Source: Clostridia bacterium
GTDB taxonomy: Bacteria; Bacillota; Clostridia; Christensenellales; Aristaeellaceae
Reading direction: 5' to 3'
DNA length: 64,000 nt
Assembly (NCBI GenBank): GCA_017527065.1
Contig: JAFXQO010000036.1
Coordinates: forward strand, 52,826-116,825
This document shows positions 13,178 to 16,923 of this stretch, piece after piece; positions within the stretch are counted from its first letter, which is position 1, and each line of letters begins with the position of its first letter. A program made the translations under genes and the position numbers. Below the pieces are notes generated by a model. It did not search any database. It saw only the letters and a list, made by a program, of their open reading frames with translations, and was not told the origin of the DNA.

Positions 13178-13204
13178 GAGATAGTCAACGGAATTGACTA
13201 TCTC
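13178..13204. promoter_or_regulatory. Repressor operator (palindrome) at the 3' end of cro
   Basis: Perfect inverted repeat GAGATAGTCAA-N5-TTGACTATCTC (11-bp arms, 5-bp centre) overlapping the cro stop codon. The core TAGTCAA-N5-TTGACTA is shared with the site at 13432-13452, so both are probably bound by the CI-like or Cro-like protein. Position inside the transcribed region suggests a roadblock or looping site. Confidence 0.6.
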
Positions 13205-13409
13205 GGGTAAAAAAATAAGGGAATGCTTCGGCCTCGGATATTTCAAGTAGTCTACACCAAAGCGCGATCTCATCTTGGGAGAGCTTTGCTTTGTTGTTCA
13301 GCTTACGAGATAGTGTCCGTTCAGCCATATTTGCAGCTTTCGCAAACGCTGACCGGCTACCATATCTTTCGATGATGCGACCAATCAGCTTGCGATAATC
13401 ATATGCCAT
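13185..13409 (-). CDS. Cro-like phage repressor
   Basis: A 74-residue Xre-family protein. The HTH spans residues 18-40 (RSAFAKAANMAERTLSRKLN), with the downstream helix LSQDEIALWCRLLEI. Size and layout match Firmicute phage Cro/DUF739-type regulators. It is transcribed leftward from the promoter at 13457-13485, divergent from the CI-like gene, and RBS GAGGAGGTGAT is strong. It should repress the lysogenic promoter by binding the shared operators during lytic growth. Confidence 0.82.
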   Translation of the reverse strand: MAYDYRKLIGRIIERYGSRSAFAKAANMAERTLSRKLNNKAKLSQDEIALWCRLLEISEAEAFPYFFTRDSQFR

Positions 13410-13525: not shown

Positions 13526-13554
13526 TTGACTAATTCGGCGCCTTCGTGTATAAT
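13526..13554 (+). promoter_or_regulatory. Rightward lysogenic (CI) promoter
   Basis: TTGACT (13526-13531), 17-bp spacer, TATAAT (13549-13554), about 25 nt before the CI-like start codon. The -35 hexamer is itself part of an operator half site TTGACTAA, so the repressor probably controls its own synthesis. Confidence 0.75.
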
Positions 13555-13579
13555 AGTGGCAACGCAGGAGGATATGGAT

Positions 13580-13972
13580 ATGAAAGTTACAACGTCAGAA
13601 AGATTACAGTCTCTTATGGCTGCAAGGAATTTGCGGCAAGCCGATATTCTTGATATGATCCAGCCATATTGTAAGAAATACGATGTAAAGATTCCCCGCA
13701 ATGCTCTGAGCCAATATGTTACGGGAAAAGTTTTGCCGAAACAAGATAAGCTGACCATTCTTGGTTTAGCCCTTGGTGTTTCAGAAGTATGGCTTATGGG
13801 ATATGACGTTCCTATGGAAAGAGAAAAACCCGCCCCGGAGCCTTCCAGCTCGGAGCGGGATGAAATCACTGCGTTGTTTGCTTCTCTGTCTGACGAGAAT
13901 CAGAAGCGGCTTCTTGACTATGCGCAAGTTCTCTTAAAAGCGCAGCAAGCCGAGAACGATTCTCAGGCGTAA
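13580..13972 (+). CDS. CI-like phage repressor (Xre family)
   Basis: A 130-residue repressor. The ATG at 13580 is 8 nt after AGGAGG; an ATG two codons earlier is too close. Residues 3-70 form the HTH domain (SERLQSLMAARNLRQADILD, with NALSQYVTGKVLPKQDKL). A short linker is followed by a helical tail with SLSDENQKRLLDYAQ, a motif common at the end of Firmicute Xre repressors. It lacks the peptidase (LexA/S24) domain, so induction would need a partner or antirepressor rather than RecA-driven self-cleavage. Divergent to cro, with shared operators between. Confidence 0.85.
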   Translation: MKVTTSERLQSLMAARNLRQADILDMIQPYCKKYDVKIPRNALSQYVTGKVLPKQDKLTILGLALGVSEVWLMGYDVPMEREKPAPEPSSSERDEITALFASLSDENQKRLLDYAQVLLKAQQAENDSQA

Positions 13973-14192: not shown

Positions 14193-15011
14193 ATGAATGT
14201 ACCGATTATCAGGATGTACGTTGATGAAAACGGGCACCAAAATCTGAACGGGGATCTGAGTAATCCAAGCAAACGATTTCTATGCGTGACAGGAGTTATC
14301 ATGCCGATTGAAGAACACGATAACTCCCTTATGCCAAAGATGAATGCGCTTAAAATGCAGTATTTTCATGACACATCAATAGTACTGCATCGTAGAGAAA
14401 TAATATCTGCCACTGGTGTATTTTCCTGTCTGGCGGATCCAAATGTTCGTGATTCTTTTAATAATGATATTCTCGATATCGTTAAGACGGTGAGATATAG
14501 AGTAATATCAGTTGTGATCGATAAATATGCTCTAGTTCAAAAATATGGCATTCTAAGAGCACAAGATCCATATGCTCTATCTATTGAGTATTTGATGCAG
14601 CGTTATCAATATTGGATGCAAAACTATGCCATAAACAACCACATATCAAACCCATTTGGAGACATTTTGGCAGAAGCACGTGGAGGTGGCGAAGATAAGC
14701 TGACAAAAGTGACTTACCAAGAAATATATGCTGGGAGAGGGTACAATCAACTCAAGGATGCGGATAAGTATTATACCTCTTCCCAGATTAAATTGAAACC
14801 AAAGAAAGCTAATATTGCTGGCCTGCAATTTGTGGATTTGATTTCTCATCCCGCCAGACGGTATATCCTAACGATGAATGGGCTTGGAGATGACTTCAAG
14901 AAGAGTTCTTTTGAAGAAGAAATAGTAGATATACTGGTTCGCACAAAATTCCGCAGAAATTCGTCTGCTATAATTGATGGCGTCGGGACGGTATTCTTCC
15001 CCAAAAAATAG
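14193..15011 (+). CDS. DUF3800-family protein (RNase H-like fold)
   Basis: A 272-residue protein starting at MNVPIIRMYVDENGHQ, with AAAGGA 9 nt upstream. DUF3800 hallmarks are the N-terminal MYVDENG (acidic residues at about 9-10), the central VVIDKYAL, and the C-terminal GLQFVDLISHPARR (Asp at about 230), together forming a putative RNase H-like acidic site. The gene is visibly AT-richer than its neighbours, a sign of separate origin. It sits between the phage repressor and integrase as cargo. A convergent structured RNA begins just beyond its stop. DUF3800 genes are often found in defence islands and phages; biochemical activity is not known here. Confidence 0.8.
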   Translation: MNVPIIRMYVDENGHQNLNGDLSNPSKRFLCVTGVIMPIEEHDNSLMPKMNALKMQYFHDTSIVLHRREIISATGVFSCLADPNVRDSFNNDILDIVKTVRYRVISVVIDKYALVQKYGILRAQDPYALSIEYLMQRYQYWMQNYAINNHISNPFGDILAEARGGGEDKLTKVTYQEIYAGRGYNQLKDADKYYTSSQIKLKPKKANIAGLQFVDLISHPARRYILTMNGLGDDFKKSSFEEEIVDILVRTKFRRNSSAIIDGVGTVFFPKK

Positions 15012-15072
15012 AACAGCCCGTAAACGGGCTGCCTACGAGCGCAAGCGCTCCACCTCCAAGATTTCTTGGATT
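15003..15072 (-). ncRNA. About 70-nt three-hairpin RNA convergent with the DUF3800 gene
   Basis: Predicted transcript from the promoter at 15079-15107 to a T-run at 15003-15008. It folds as three simple hairpins in a row: TCCAAG-AAAT-CTTGGA, then GAGCG-CTTG-CGCTC (a stable CUUG tetraloop), then the terminator CAGCCCG-TTTA-CGGGCTG followed by TCTATTTTTT. A single-stranded GGTG lies between hairpins 1 and 2. No reading frame of note. The 3' end overlaps the DUF3800 stop codon in antisense. From memory, comparative studies have described structured RNA motifs next to DUF3800 genes; which class this is, if any, cannot be checked here. Confidence 0.6.
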
Positions 15073-15078
15073 GGCTAT

Positions 15079-15107
15079 ATTATACCCGTAGGGTATCGAT
15101 TTGTCAA
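15079..15107 (-). promoter_or_regulatory. Consensus promoter of the small RNA
   Basis: Minus-strand TTGACA (15102-15107), 17-bp spacer, TATAAT (15079-15084), an exact match to the sigma-A consensus. Only the about 70-nt hairpin RNA lies between it and a terminator, so it is not a gene promoter. Confidence 0.75.
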
Positions 15108-15390: not shown

Positions 15391-16923
15391 ATGCCAAGAC
15401 GTCCCGCGATCCAGCCCGGTCAGGAGCGCAACGCCGCCATCTACGCCCGTTACTCATCCTCCGTCCAGAACGACGCCAGCATTGAGCAGCAGATCGCCGA
15501 GTGTCAGGACTTTGCCAGGGTAAAGGGCTACAAGATTGTCGCCACATATGCCGATCATGCCATCAGCGGCCGTACTGACCGACGACCGGAATTCCAGAAG
15601 ATGATGAAGGCGGCGGAGCGGCGCGAGTTCCAGGTTGTGCTGGCGTACAAGTCCAATCGCATCAGCCGGAACATGTTGCACGCCCTGTCCTATGAAGACA
15701 AGCTGGCTAAGCTCGGAATAGACGTCTATTACTGCAAGGAGGAATTCGGTGACAACGCCGTAGGCCGCTTCGCTCTCCGCACGATGATGAACGTCAACCA
15801 GTTTTACAGCGAGAACCTGGCCGAAGATACCCGCCGCGGCCTGATGGACAACGCCCGCCAGTGTAAGGTCAATGGCTGCCCACCATACGGTTATAGGCGC
15901 GGTGAGGATGGCAAGTTCACCATAGACGAAGAACGCGCCGCCATCGTTCGAGAAATCTTCCGGCGCATCGCTGATGGTGAGATAAAGGCGCAGATTGCTG
16001 ACGATCTGAATGCGCGAAACCTCCGCACGGGCACAGGCCATGAGTGGGGGAAGAACGCCTTCTCCGCGATGCTAGACAATGAGCGCTACAAGGGTATCTA
16101 CATTTACGGAGAAGTGCGCATTCCTGGCGGTATGCCGGCGATTGTAGATGAGGATCTGTTTGACCGGGCGCGTGAACGATATGATACTGACAAGGGGATT
16201 ATCCGATCCAGAAGGAGGCGCGACAACGTGGAGTATCTATTGACGGGGAAACTGTTCTGCGGCTATTGCCTCGATCCGATGATGGGAGCCTCCGGGACCA
16301 GCAGATCAGGGGCCATGTATTATTACTACCGATGCCGGAACAATGCGGAGAAACACACCTGCCGGAAGAAGCCGGTTCGGAAAGAGCTCATTGAACGTCT
16401 GGTAGTGTCCGCACTCTATGAGTGCATCACGAAACCCGAGAACGTGGAGTGGCTGACAGACTTGGTCATGAAGTACAAGAATAAGATCATCGCAGATTCG
16501 GATATCGGTTACCTAGAAGAAAAACTGTCAGAGGTCAAGACGGCGATCAAGAATATCATGAAAGCTATCGAGGCTGGTGTCGTTACCGAAACTACCACGG
16601 CTCGGCTGAAAGAACTCGAAGCGGAGCAGAAAGAAATACTGACCAGTCTGTTGGAGGAACGGCGAAAGGTTCCGGATATTACCAGAGATCACATTCTGTA
16701 CTATTTTGAACAGTTCAAAAACGGGAATGTGCGGGACAGGAAATATCAGAAGCTGCTCATCCGTAATTTCCTGAGGAAGGTGTACTTGTATGACGATCAC
16801 ATAAAGATTACGTTCGACTATGCCGAGGATTCAGACGCAGACGTTGAGATTCCTCTCGATGAGGCCGAAAGCGATAGCGGCGAGGTCAAGGATGTTCTTA
16901 TAAGTGATAATATGGGGAGTTGA
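15391..16923 (+). CDS. Large serine recombinase (phage integrase)
   Basis: A 510-residue site-specific recombinase. The resolvase catalytic domain covers residues about 12-165: YARYSS carries the nucleophile Ser (about 22), with SNRISRN and downstream Arg residues. A recombinase domain follows (GCPPYGYRRGEDGKFTIDEE). A zinc ribbon (FCGYC and later YRCRNN...HTC, about residues 290-325) and a long coiled coil (LEEKLSEVKTAIKNIMK, about 370-420) come next, as in phage integrases that need a directionality factor. RBS AAGGAGG. It is the last gene of the element, so an attachment site is expected close to its 3' end. Confidence 0.95.
   Translation: MPRRPAIQPGQERNAAIYARYSSSVQNDASIEQQIAECQDFARVKGYKIVATYADHAISGRTDRRPEFQKMMKAAERREFQVVLAYKSNRISRNMLHALSYEDKLAKLGIDVYYCKEEFGDNAVGRFALRTMMNVNQFYSENLAEDTRRGLMDNARQCKVNGCPPYGYRRGEDGKFTIDEERAAIVREIFRRIADGEIKAQIADDLNARNLRTGTGHEWGKNAFSAMLDNERYKGIYIYGEVRIPGGMPAIVDEDLFDRARERYDTDKGIIRSRRRRDNVEYLLTGKLFCGYCLDPMMGASGTSRSGAMYYYYRCRNNAEKHTCRKKPVRKELIERLVVSALYECITKPENVEWLTDLVMKYKNKIIADSDIGYLEEKLSEVKTAIKNIMKAIEAGVVTETTTARLKELEAEQKEILTSLLEERRKVPDITRDHILYYFEQFKNGNVRDRKYQKLLIRNFLRKVYLYDDHIKITFDYAEDSDADVEIPLDEAESDSGEVKDVLISDNMGS

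What the first reader, a model, noticed from the sequence alone, without database searches (positions are those of the whole stretch)
14193..15107. DUF3800 gene paired with a tiny three-hairpin RNA in prophage cargo position
Directly seen: an AT-rich DUF3800 gene whose stop codon overlaps, in antisense, the 3' end of a short unit. That unit has an exact TTGACA-N17-TATAAT promoter, about 70 nt of transcript with three consecutive hairpins, and a T-run terminator. There is no room for a protein. Known: DUF3800 proteins have an RNase H-like acidic core, and structured RNAs near DUF3800 genes have been reported to my recollection. Inference: protein and RNA form one functional unit, for example an RNA-guided or RNA-inhibited nuclease, a toxin with RNA antitoxin, or phage-exclusion cargo.
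Basis: partly seen in the sequence, partly recalled or inferred. Interest (0 to 1): 0.8.

Follow-up and report, generated by a model that had tools for sequence, protein, structure and literature searches.

The report
DUF3800 protein with convergent partner RNA
A prophage gene of unknown function (DUF3800, a probable nuclease) is paired with a tiny structured RNA that is read head-on into its end, and a similar pairing recurs in distant bacteria, plasmids and phages, so protein and RNA probably work as one unit, perhaps an RNA-restrained toxin or anti-phage system.

Summary
Observation confirmed: DUF3800 gene 14193-15011 (+) and, convergent to it, an RNA unit 15107-15003 (-) with a 12-of-12 promoter, three hairpins and a T-run overlapping the stop codon. 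It is not chance: all 5 assessable loci of this DUF3800 subfamily (window plus four MAGs, 58-64% protein identity) carry the same unit. Of 16 fetched distant relatives (18-30% identity; one phage record, 15 plasmid-collection records), 15 have a convergent RNA of similar shape; 13 share the core GGAUUGGG-n-CCCGGUC-GGC or a covarying form. These 20 loci fall in one DUF3800 clade (100/99). No Rfam family matches. Rfam's DUF3800-I and -XI, where met here, lie upstream on the same strand of DUF3800s outside this clade. RNA-DUF3800 association is known; this RNA family and its convergent architecture appear new. The distant-type hairpin gives 100 stretches in viral contigs against 1 for a permuted control; 28 of 100 lie beside this DUF3800 (28 of 28 convergent), 72 do not: possible phage decoys. 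Mechanism (RNA-restrained nuclease, as in type III toxin-antitoxin or AbiF) is inference; an RNA guide is unlikely for lack of a variable segment. The RNase H fold was not confirmed here.

The parts
14193..15011 (+). DUF3800 gene (P0001, 272 aa); conserved acidic residues D11, E12, E161, D215
   Evidence: residue conservation (numbers there are 7 lower because the row was trimmed)
15079..15107 (-). sigma-70 consensus promoter of the RNA (TTGACA-N17-TATAAT); spacer holds an ATACCC-tac-GGGTAT inverted repeat (15082-15096)
   Evidence: inverted repeat (not significant on its own, p about 0.12)
15003..15074 (-). partner RNA, about 70 nt, convergent to and overlapping the DUF3800 stop codon (transcription itself not tested)
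15055..15070 (-). hairpin 1, UCCAAG-n4-CUUGGA, followed by GGUGGAG; sequence nearly invariant in the family
15037..15050 (-). hairpin 2, GAGYG-n4-CRCUC; one compensated pair (C-G here, U-A in the other four)
15003..15033 (-). hairpin 3 and T-run, intrinsic terminator; stem sequence varies, pairing largely kept
15391..16923 (+). serine recombinase (prophage integrase position), context only
13574..13972 (+). ORF in repressor position (no Pfam match) behind a TTGACT-N17-TATAAT promoter at 13526; no plus-strand promoter-like site of 9 of 12 or more lies between it and the DUF3800 gene, so co-transcription is possible (inference)
13185..13409 (-). DUF739 protein with a sub-threshold HTH match, prophage context

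Best explanation
DUF3800 and the small RNA are the two halves of one ribonucleoprotein module carried by mobile elements. The protein is a metal-dependent nuclease-like enzyme with a conserved acidic D-E...E...D core. The RNA, made in excess from its own strong promoter, binds the protein through hairpin 1 and the GGC/GGU that follows it, and keeps it in check. If the RNA supply fails, for example when a phage shuts down host transcription, the protein is set free and cuts nucleic acid, giving abortive infection or element maintenance. This is how type III toxin-antitoxin systems and AbiF-RCd22 are held to work. Shown here: a conserved RNA locus, its strand, its link to this DUF3800 clade, the conserved acidic residues and the mobile or defence surroundings. 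Inferred: transcription, binding, inhibition, toxicity and defence.
For: Linkage: convergent RNA in 5 of 5 assessable loci of the window family and in 15 of 16 fetched distant relatives, all in one clade, 100/99. RNA as bait: 16 of 19 and 30 of 31 plasmid-collection records with an RNA match also hold this DUF3800 (against 68); in viral contigs 28 of 28 loci with both parts are convergent. In 396 order and 391 class genomes model R2 gave no strong hit (over 60 bits) away from DUF3800; its three strong hits are three of the five loci it was built from. Structure: 7 of 19 pairs with changes on both sides, 0 of 500 shuffles as high; 45 G-U and 0 A-C cells fix the RNA strand. The RNA promoter is 12 of 12 here and 10 of 12 in the other four family loci, while no promoter-like site lies just before the DUF3800 gene here. 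Context: between genes I read as hsdS and a PIN gene in a type I restriction operon (L008; PIN by Pfam), beside a nucleotidyltransferase/HepT-type gene and an ORF I read as a recombinase (L007), after CI in a phage, in plasmid records. Precedent: AbiF-RCd22 in a prophage, where the RNA neutralises the toxin by direct binding (PMC12373285, abstract and passages).
Against: No toxicity, binding or expression data. Type III antitoxin RNAs are repeats before the toxin in one operon; this RNA is a single unit, convergent, with its own promoter. Foldseek against PDB gave no match at E<=0.001, so the nuclease fold rests on residues and on a published statement (PMC10910872, passages). No DUF3800 hit in PADLOC (two weak JetB hits only) or PHROGs (0 families). 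In the 15 distant loci only 7 have an antisense promoter-like site of 9 of 12 or more and 3 have none by my rule. Three partial plasmid RNA matches are not in the DUF3800 list, two of them fetched; one full RNA sits beside AbiEii instead; 72 of 100 viral loci with the distant-type hairpin lack this DUF3800 in the stored stretch. So the hairpin is not exclusive to the pair.
Confidence: 0.5

Rival explanations
1. The RNA is an essential positive cofactor: DUF3800 is active only as a complex with it, and the RNA positions a substrate (tRNA, mRNA, phage DNA or RNA).
For: A conserved hairpin plus conserved 3' flank reads equally well as a holoenzyme scaffold. A TPR-DUF3800 protein occurs beside Cas12a2 and was suggested to act in interference or crRNA biogenesis or degradation (PMC10910872, passages).
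Against: By inspection the RNA has no variable, unpaired segment of guide length: loops of about 4-8 nt and a short leader. The RNA has a strong promoter of its own while the DUF3800 here lacks a nearby one, which suits an inhibitor in excess better.
Confidence: 0.25
2. The RNA regulates DUF3800 expression only, as an antisense or convergent transcript (interference, mRNA 3' end protection), without binding the protein.
For: The RNA overlaps the stop codon in the window and is convergent in 20 of the 22 rows of the clade.
Against: Overlap with the gene is only a few bases in the window. No excess complementarity to the 5' part of the mRNA in 5 of 5 family loci (p 0.06-0.75). The other two clade rows (L033, L058) have candidate RNAs in sense orientation downstream, judged by eye. 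Hairpin sequence, not just antisense position, is conserved, and the same hairpin occurs away from the gene.
Confidence: 0.12
3. The hairpin is a general RNA module bound by some host or phage factor, and DUF3800 genes merely use it as part of a common terminator-type RNA.
For: The distant-type hairpin gives 100 stretches against 1 for a permuted control in viral contigs, and 72 of 100 loci have no DUF3800 of this clade in the stored stretch; of 57 of these looked at further, 46 are distinct and 16 of the 46 sit inside a longer hairpin at p<=0.05.
Against: In plasmid records nearly all RNA matches are in records with this DUF3800. The window-type hairpin was not found away from DUF3800 as a credible RNA.
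Confidence: 0.1

Closest known systems
Rfam DUF3800-I (RF02969), DUF3800-XI (RF02975) and sister families
   Same: Small structured RNAs beside DUF3800 genes; an association of DUF3800 with putative ncRNAs is noted in print (PMC10910872, passage). The original 2017 motif paper is recalled, not held.
   Different: No match of the window RNA to any of them (at gathering score, to E 10). In 20 of 29 class-set loci searched, 2 DUF3800-I and 4 DUF3800-XI matches lie just upstream of their gene on the same strand, beside DUF3800s outside this clade; here the RNA is convergent at the 3' end.
AbiF-RCd22 RNA-protein system of a C. difficile prophage (PMC12373285)
   Same: Prophage-borne protein with its own small RNA; there the RNA neutralises the protein by binding.
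   Different: Abi_2/AbiD/F protein, not DUF3800 (the word DUF3800 does not occur in its main text); its RNA precedes the gene and has two motif repeats.
Type III toxin-antitoxin ToxIN and the phage pseudo-ToxI mimic (PMC3475682)
   Same: An RNA restrains a toxic protein; a phage carries an RNA mimic, a precedent for the orphan hairpins seen here.
   Different: ToxI is an array of repeats in the toxin operon; this RNA is single and convergent with its own promoter; P0001 matches DUF3800 alone in Pfam.
TPR-DUF3800 protein beside Cas12a2 (PMC10910872)
   Same: DUF3800 domain, predicted RNase H fold, possible RNA role.
   Different: Fused to TPR and linked to a CRISPR system; P0001 has no TPR match. 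CRISPR arrays were not searched for in the window.
Rfam BjrC68 (RF02353)
   Same: Weak sub-threshold shape match to three of six distant RNAs searched (20-21 bits, gathering score 39).
   Different: Consensus sequence of stem and flank does not agree in L019; rejected as a relative.

Membership tests
DUF3800 (PF12686) | Whole-protein score over the curated cut-off | tested here: met
   42 bits against 21, residues 8-224
DUF3800 (PF12686) | Conserved DE(S/N)G start and C-terminal QxxD (my description from the alignment) | tested here: met
   D11, E12, D215 in 22 of 22 clade rows and 19, 19 and 21 of 21 other rows
RNase H-like nuclease fold | Structural match to a solved RNase H-fold protein | tested here: inconclusive
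   AlphaFold2 pLDDT 80, pTM 0.83; Foldseek: no PDB match at E<=0.001, a PiwiA chain at rank 24 with probability 0.13
Rfam DUF3800 RNAs | Covariance model score over gathering threshold | tested here: not met
   0 matches at gathering score in the window; no DUF3800 family up to E 10 around the unit. That the library holds I and XI is seen, IX from PMC11701678 (passage); the others were not checked
Type III toxin-antitoxin | Antitoxin RNA of tandem repeats before the toxin, co-transcribed, terminator between | tested here: not met
   Single RNA unit, convergent, own promoter
Type III toxin-antitoxin | Toxin alone stops growth; RNA neutralises it by binding | not testable with these tools
   needs expression and binding assays
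RNA-guided nuclease (CRISPR, OMEGA, bridge RNA type) | Variable guide segment in the RNA | tested here: not met
   By inspection of the alignments, no variable unpaired stretch of guide length in the 5 family or 13 distant RNAs
Anti-phage defence system | Protects cells from phage | not testable with these tools
   Only context: restriction operon, phage and plasmid cargo; no DUF3800 match in PADLOC

The most novel reading that the evidence does not exclude
A previously undescribed class of RNA-restrained DUF3800 defence module, spread over Bacillota, Pseudomonadota, a Thermus plasmid and phages, against which phages have evolved RNA decoys: the many orphan GGAUUGGG-n-CCCGGUC-GGC hairpins in viral contigs without a DUF3800 gene, often set into a longer intergenic hairpin, would mimic the partner RNA, a natural and common counterpart of pseudo-ToxI.
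Probability: 0.2. Interest if true: 0.9.

Novelty: new variant of a known kind. Interest (0 to 1): 0.72.

Why it matters
RNAs next to DUF3800 genes have been listed, as far as I could find, without a function. Here one well-bounded clade has a minimal pair (about 270 residues plus about 70 nt), a clear strand, a candidate binding element (hairpin 1 plus GGC/GGU) and natural variants from three phyla, so the question 'what does the RNA do to the protein' can be tested directly by expression with and without the RNA and by swapping pairs. The orphan hairpins in viral contigs give a second testable question: mimicry of a defence RNA.

Tried and rejected
Close relatives by peptide patterns of the single protein: none in genome contigs or viral contigs; the two-row alignment found 5 loci in genome contigs and none in viral contigs. 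Pattern hits L004 and L010 in viral contigs are matches in coding DNA. Weak RNA-model hits L013 (25.9 bits) and L015 (28.1 bits) have no DUF3800 match. Rfam sbrA (E 0.09) and adapt33_2 and BjrC68: below threshold, rejected. RNA encoding a peptide: judged unlikely. RNA pairing with the 5' part of the DUF3800 mRNA: no excess. Blast of the window RNA in phages and of a typed consensus in plasmids: no match. Inverted repeat in the RNA promoter spacer as an operator: combined p 0.013 over 11 hand-picked promoters, single p 0.03-0.56; in L006, L007, L017 and L018 the best repeat is not in the spacer; left as weak. General convergent promoter beside all DUF3800 genes: not found; in 30 other loci (29 of the class set, of which L031 is L008 again, plus L058) antisense and sense promoters are alike (14 against 11 at 9 of 12 or more). 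Model R3 of the distant RNA did not find L056, L057 or L033 with filters off and found L058 only at E 0.18; with default filters it did not find the window family. So kinship of the two hairpin types rests on position and shape, not sequence. In L060 the minimum-energy fold does not show the core hairpin, though its sequence is there.

Full report
Observation. The window holds a DUF3800 gene at 14193-15011 (+) (PF12686, 42 bits). On the other strand lies a TTGACA-N17-TATAAT promoter (15107-15079, 12 of 12), then about 70 nt that fold into three hairpins (15078-15003: -33.8 kcal/mol, z -4.8, 0 of 200 shuffles as good) and a terminator whose T-run overlaps the stop codon. Rfam has nothing at gathering score in the whole window and no DUF3800 family even at E 10 around the unit. 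The count of promoter-like and terminator-like sites in the region is what shuffles give, so the sequence alone would not prove a gene for an RNA.

Family of the window. The protein is rare: 1 of 150 relatives (the window's own genome), 2 of 396 genomes of the order (own included), and 5 loci in genome contigs (L007 is the same contig as L003). L009 ends inside the gene and cannot be judged. In all 5 assessable loci (window, L005, L006, L007, L008) the same RNA stands convergent at the 3' end of the gene: promoter, then AUCCAA-n5/6-CUUGGAG-n2-GGAGYG-YUUR-CRCUCG, then a terminator whose stem differs with pairing largely kept. Antisense promoters score 10-12 of 12 in 5 of 5, sense ones reach 9 in 0 of 5. 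Hairpins 1 and 2 are almost invariant, so covariation inside this family is slight: one compensated pair, equalled by 96 of 500 shuffles.

Reverse search. Model R2 (hairpins 1 and 2) run over 396 order and 391 class genomes gave three strong loci, G000, G384 and G541 (61.3-64.2 bits), all beside the DUF3800. All three are among the five loci the model was built from, so they match by construction; the news is that no other strong copy turned up. Two weak hits, L013 and L015, are not beside a DUF3800. These runs used stricter filters and scored at most 16 candidates per genome.

Distant relatives. tblastn found one phage record and 49 plasmid-collection records at E<=1 (47 at E<=0.01), at 18-32% identity. 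I fetched 16 regions. In 15 of 16 a unit that starts 44-86 nt beyond the stop codon, with a hairpin followed by a terminator-type hairpin, runs convergent into the DUF3800 3' end (starts placed by eye). Thirteen share the core GGAUUGGG-n-CCCGGUC-GGC or a covarying form; L056 (Brevibacillus) and L057 (Thermus) agree by position and shape only. Antisense promoter-like sites of 9 of 12 or more occur in 7 of these 15, sense ones in 0 of 15; 3 of 15 have no antisense site by my rule. On the 13-row alignment 97.1% of 245 cells pair, 7 of 19 pairs have changes on both sides, 0 of 500 shuffles reach this, and sliding the partners breaks it; but the count of further pair types is reached by 50 of 500 shuffles, and in hairpin 1 itself only 1 of 7 pairs changes on both sides, 3 on one side and 3 never. 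The cells are 193 Watson-Crick, 45 G-U, 0 A-C and 7 other: on the opposite strand the 45 G-U cells would be mismatches, which fixes the RNA strand. The sixteenth, L058, has candidate RNAs with similar hairpins downstream in sense orientation, as does, less clearly, L033 of the class set (by eye).

Tree. Of 50 DUF3800 rows I dropped 7 (named in Tried and rejected) and built a tree of 43. All 20 loci with convergent RNA fall in one set of 22 rows, support 100/99, with L033 and L058 as the other two. Most of the set was found by similarity to P0001, so clustering is partly built in; what is not built in is that the RNA is there. Rfam, run on 20 of the 29 class-set loci, found DUF3800-I (L030, L038) and DUF3800-XI (L034, L036, L037, L046), all upstream on the same strand and outside this set. 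Thirty other loci show no general excess of antisense promoters (14 against 11), so the convergent arrangement marks this clade, with possible further cases (L024, L025, L027, L044, by eye).

RNA as bait. Blastn with two distant RNAs in the plasmid collection: 16 of 19 and 30 of 31 records with a match are also records with this DUF3800 (against 68); in the rows whose coordinates I compared they are adjacent. Exceptions: three partial matches in Bradyrhizobium (two fetched, no DUF3800 annotated) and Pigmentibacter, where a full RNA with a promoter-like sequence stands convergent to an AbiEii nucleotidyltransferase gene.

Orphan hairpins. The pattern GGATTGGGN{3,8}CCCGGTCGGC has 100 matching stretches in IMG/VR; a control with the same base pairs in another order has 1. 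Of the 100 loci, 28 hold this DUF3800 clade (tblastn E<=1e-5), all 28 convergent with the RNA nearest its 3' end: 24 at 29-66 nt and 4 at 406 nt, where the protein match is partial. Twenty-two of the 28 are closest to the Acinetobacter-type protein, so they are not independent. The other 72 have no such match in the stored stretch, which need not be the whole contig. Of these I looked further at 57 (L061-L140): they reduce to 46 distinct contexts, of which 16 place the hairpin inside a longer hairpin at p<=0.05; their nearest ORFs form no cluster larger than 5 loci, and 21 of 57 lie inside an ORF of at least 90 codons, some probably real genes and hence coding or chance matches. Rfam on ten of these loci has no family at threshold for the hairpin; a sub-threshold anti-hemB match (23.7 bits, gathering score 49.5) overlaps it in L122. 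For the window-type hairpin the two viral patterns gave one coding match each.

Protein. D11, E12, E161 and D215 are acidic in 22 of 22 clade rows; E161 is D in 21 of 21 other DUF3800 rows; K54, H66, Y127 and R163 are invariant in the clade and not outside it (numbering there 7 lower). AlphaFold2 with six sequences: pLDDT 80, pTM 0.83. Foldseek found no PDB match at E<=0.001, so the RNase H fold stated for DUF3800 in PMC10910872 (passages) is not confirmed here.

Context. Window: between a repressor-position ORF and a serine recombinase, with DUF739, SSB and AAA_24 genes to the left. L008: between a gene I read as hsdS and a PIN gene, with hsdM- and hsdR-like ORFs outside (names from the translations, PIN by Pfam). 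L007: beside a nucleotidyltransferase/HepT-type gene and an ORF I read as a recombinase; the unit is flanked by a perfect 93-bp direct repeat (L003). L006: between a tRNA and an ORF that reads like a mobilisation protein. L016: two genes after the CI repressor of a phage.

Reading. A single trans-acting-type RNA with a near-consensus promoter, no guide, conserved in hairpins and coupled to one nuclease-like clade is best read as a protein-binding partner that restrains the enzyme, as RCd22 does with AbiF (PMC12373285, abstract and passages) and ToxI with ToxN. Every step after conservation is inference. The RNA as obligatory cofactor is the main rival. The orphan hairpins recall pseudo-ToxI (PMC3475682, abstract start and passages) and would make sense as decoys, but a general RNA module bound by another factor is not excluded.

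Literature. DUF3800 occurs in 11 papers of the library (10 listed; I saw passages of three), PF12686 in 1 (listing); a search for DUF3800 RNA names gave only the Rfam 15 paper. The 2017 RNA-motif paper that I recall as the source of the DUF3800 RNAs is not held. That the convergent RNA is undescribed is therefore only as good as these searches and Rfam 15.

Noticed in passing
L061-L160 (IMG/VR), e.g. L080, L122, L131, L133: Hairpin GGAUUGGG-n-CCCGGUC-GGC recurs in viral contigs without this DUF3800 (72 of 100 loci), often inside a longer hairpin; 100 stretches against 1 for a permuted control.
   Followed up: partly
L161 1501-2449 (Pigmentibacter ruber plasmid): A full distant-type RNA stands convergent to the 3' end of an AbiEii gene instead of a DUF3800.
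   Followed up: partly
L003 952-1044 and 2323-2415: A perfect 93-bp direct repeat, holding the start region of a nucleotidyltransferase/HepT-type gene, flanks the DUF3800/RNA unit, as if the unit came in with a long target duplication; an assembly artefact is not excluded.
   Followed up: partly
L030, L038, L034, L036, L037, L046: Rfam DUF3800-I and DUF3800-XI RNAs lie just upstream of their DUF3800 genes on the same strand, unlike the convergent RNAs of the window clade.
   Followed up: yes
L058 about 830-1080; L033 downstream of its DUF3800: Members of the same DUF3800 clade with candidate partner RNAs in sense orientation downstream, with TTGACA-type promoters by eye; L058 seems to have several copies of the hairpin.
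   Followed up: partly
L024, L025, L027, L044: DUF3800 genes of other branches with an antisense promoter-like sequence close to the 3' end, possibly further RNA types.
   Followed up: no
window 15082-15096 and spacers of several distant RNA promoters: Inverted repeats of differing sequence between -35 and -10 of the RNA promoter, strongest in L016 and L019; only weakly significant as a set.
   Followed up: partly
L064 389-485: Sub-threshold match to Rfam Methylophilales-1 (55.8 bits, gathering score 79.9) about 120 nt downstream of an orphan hairpin.
   Followed up: no
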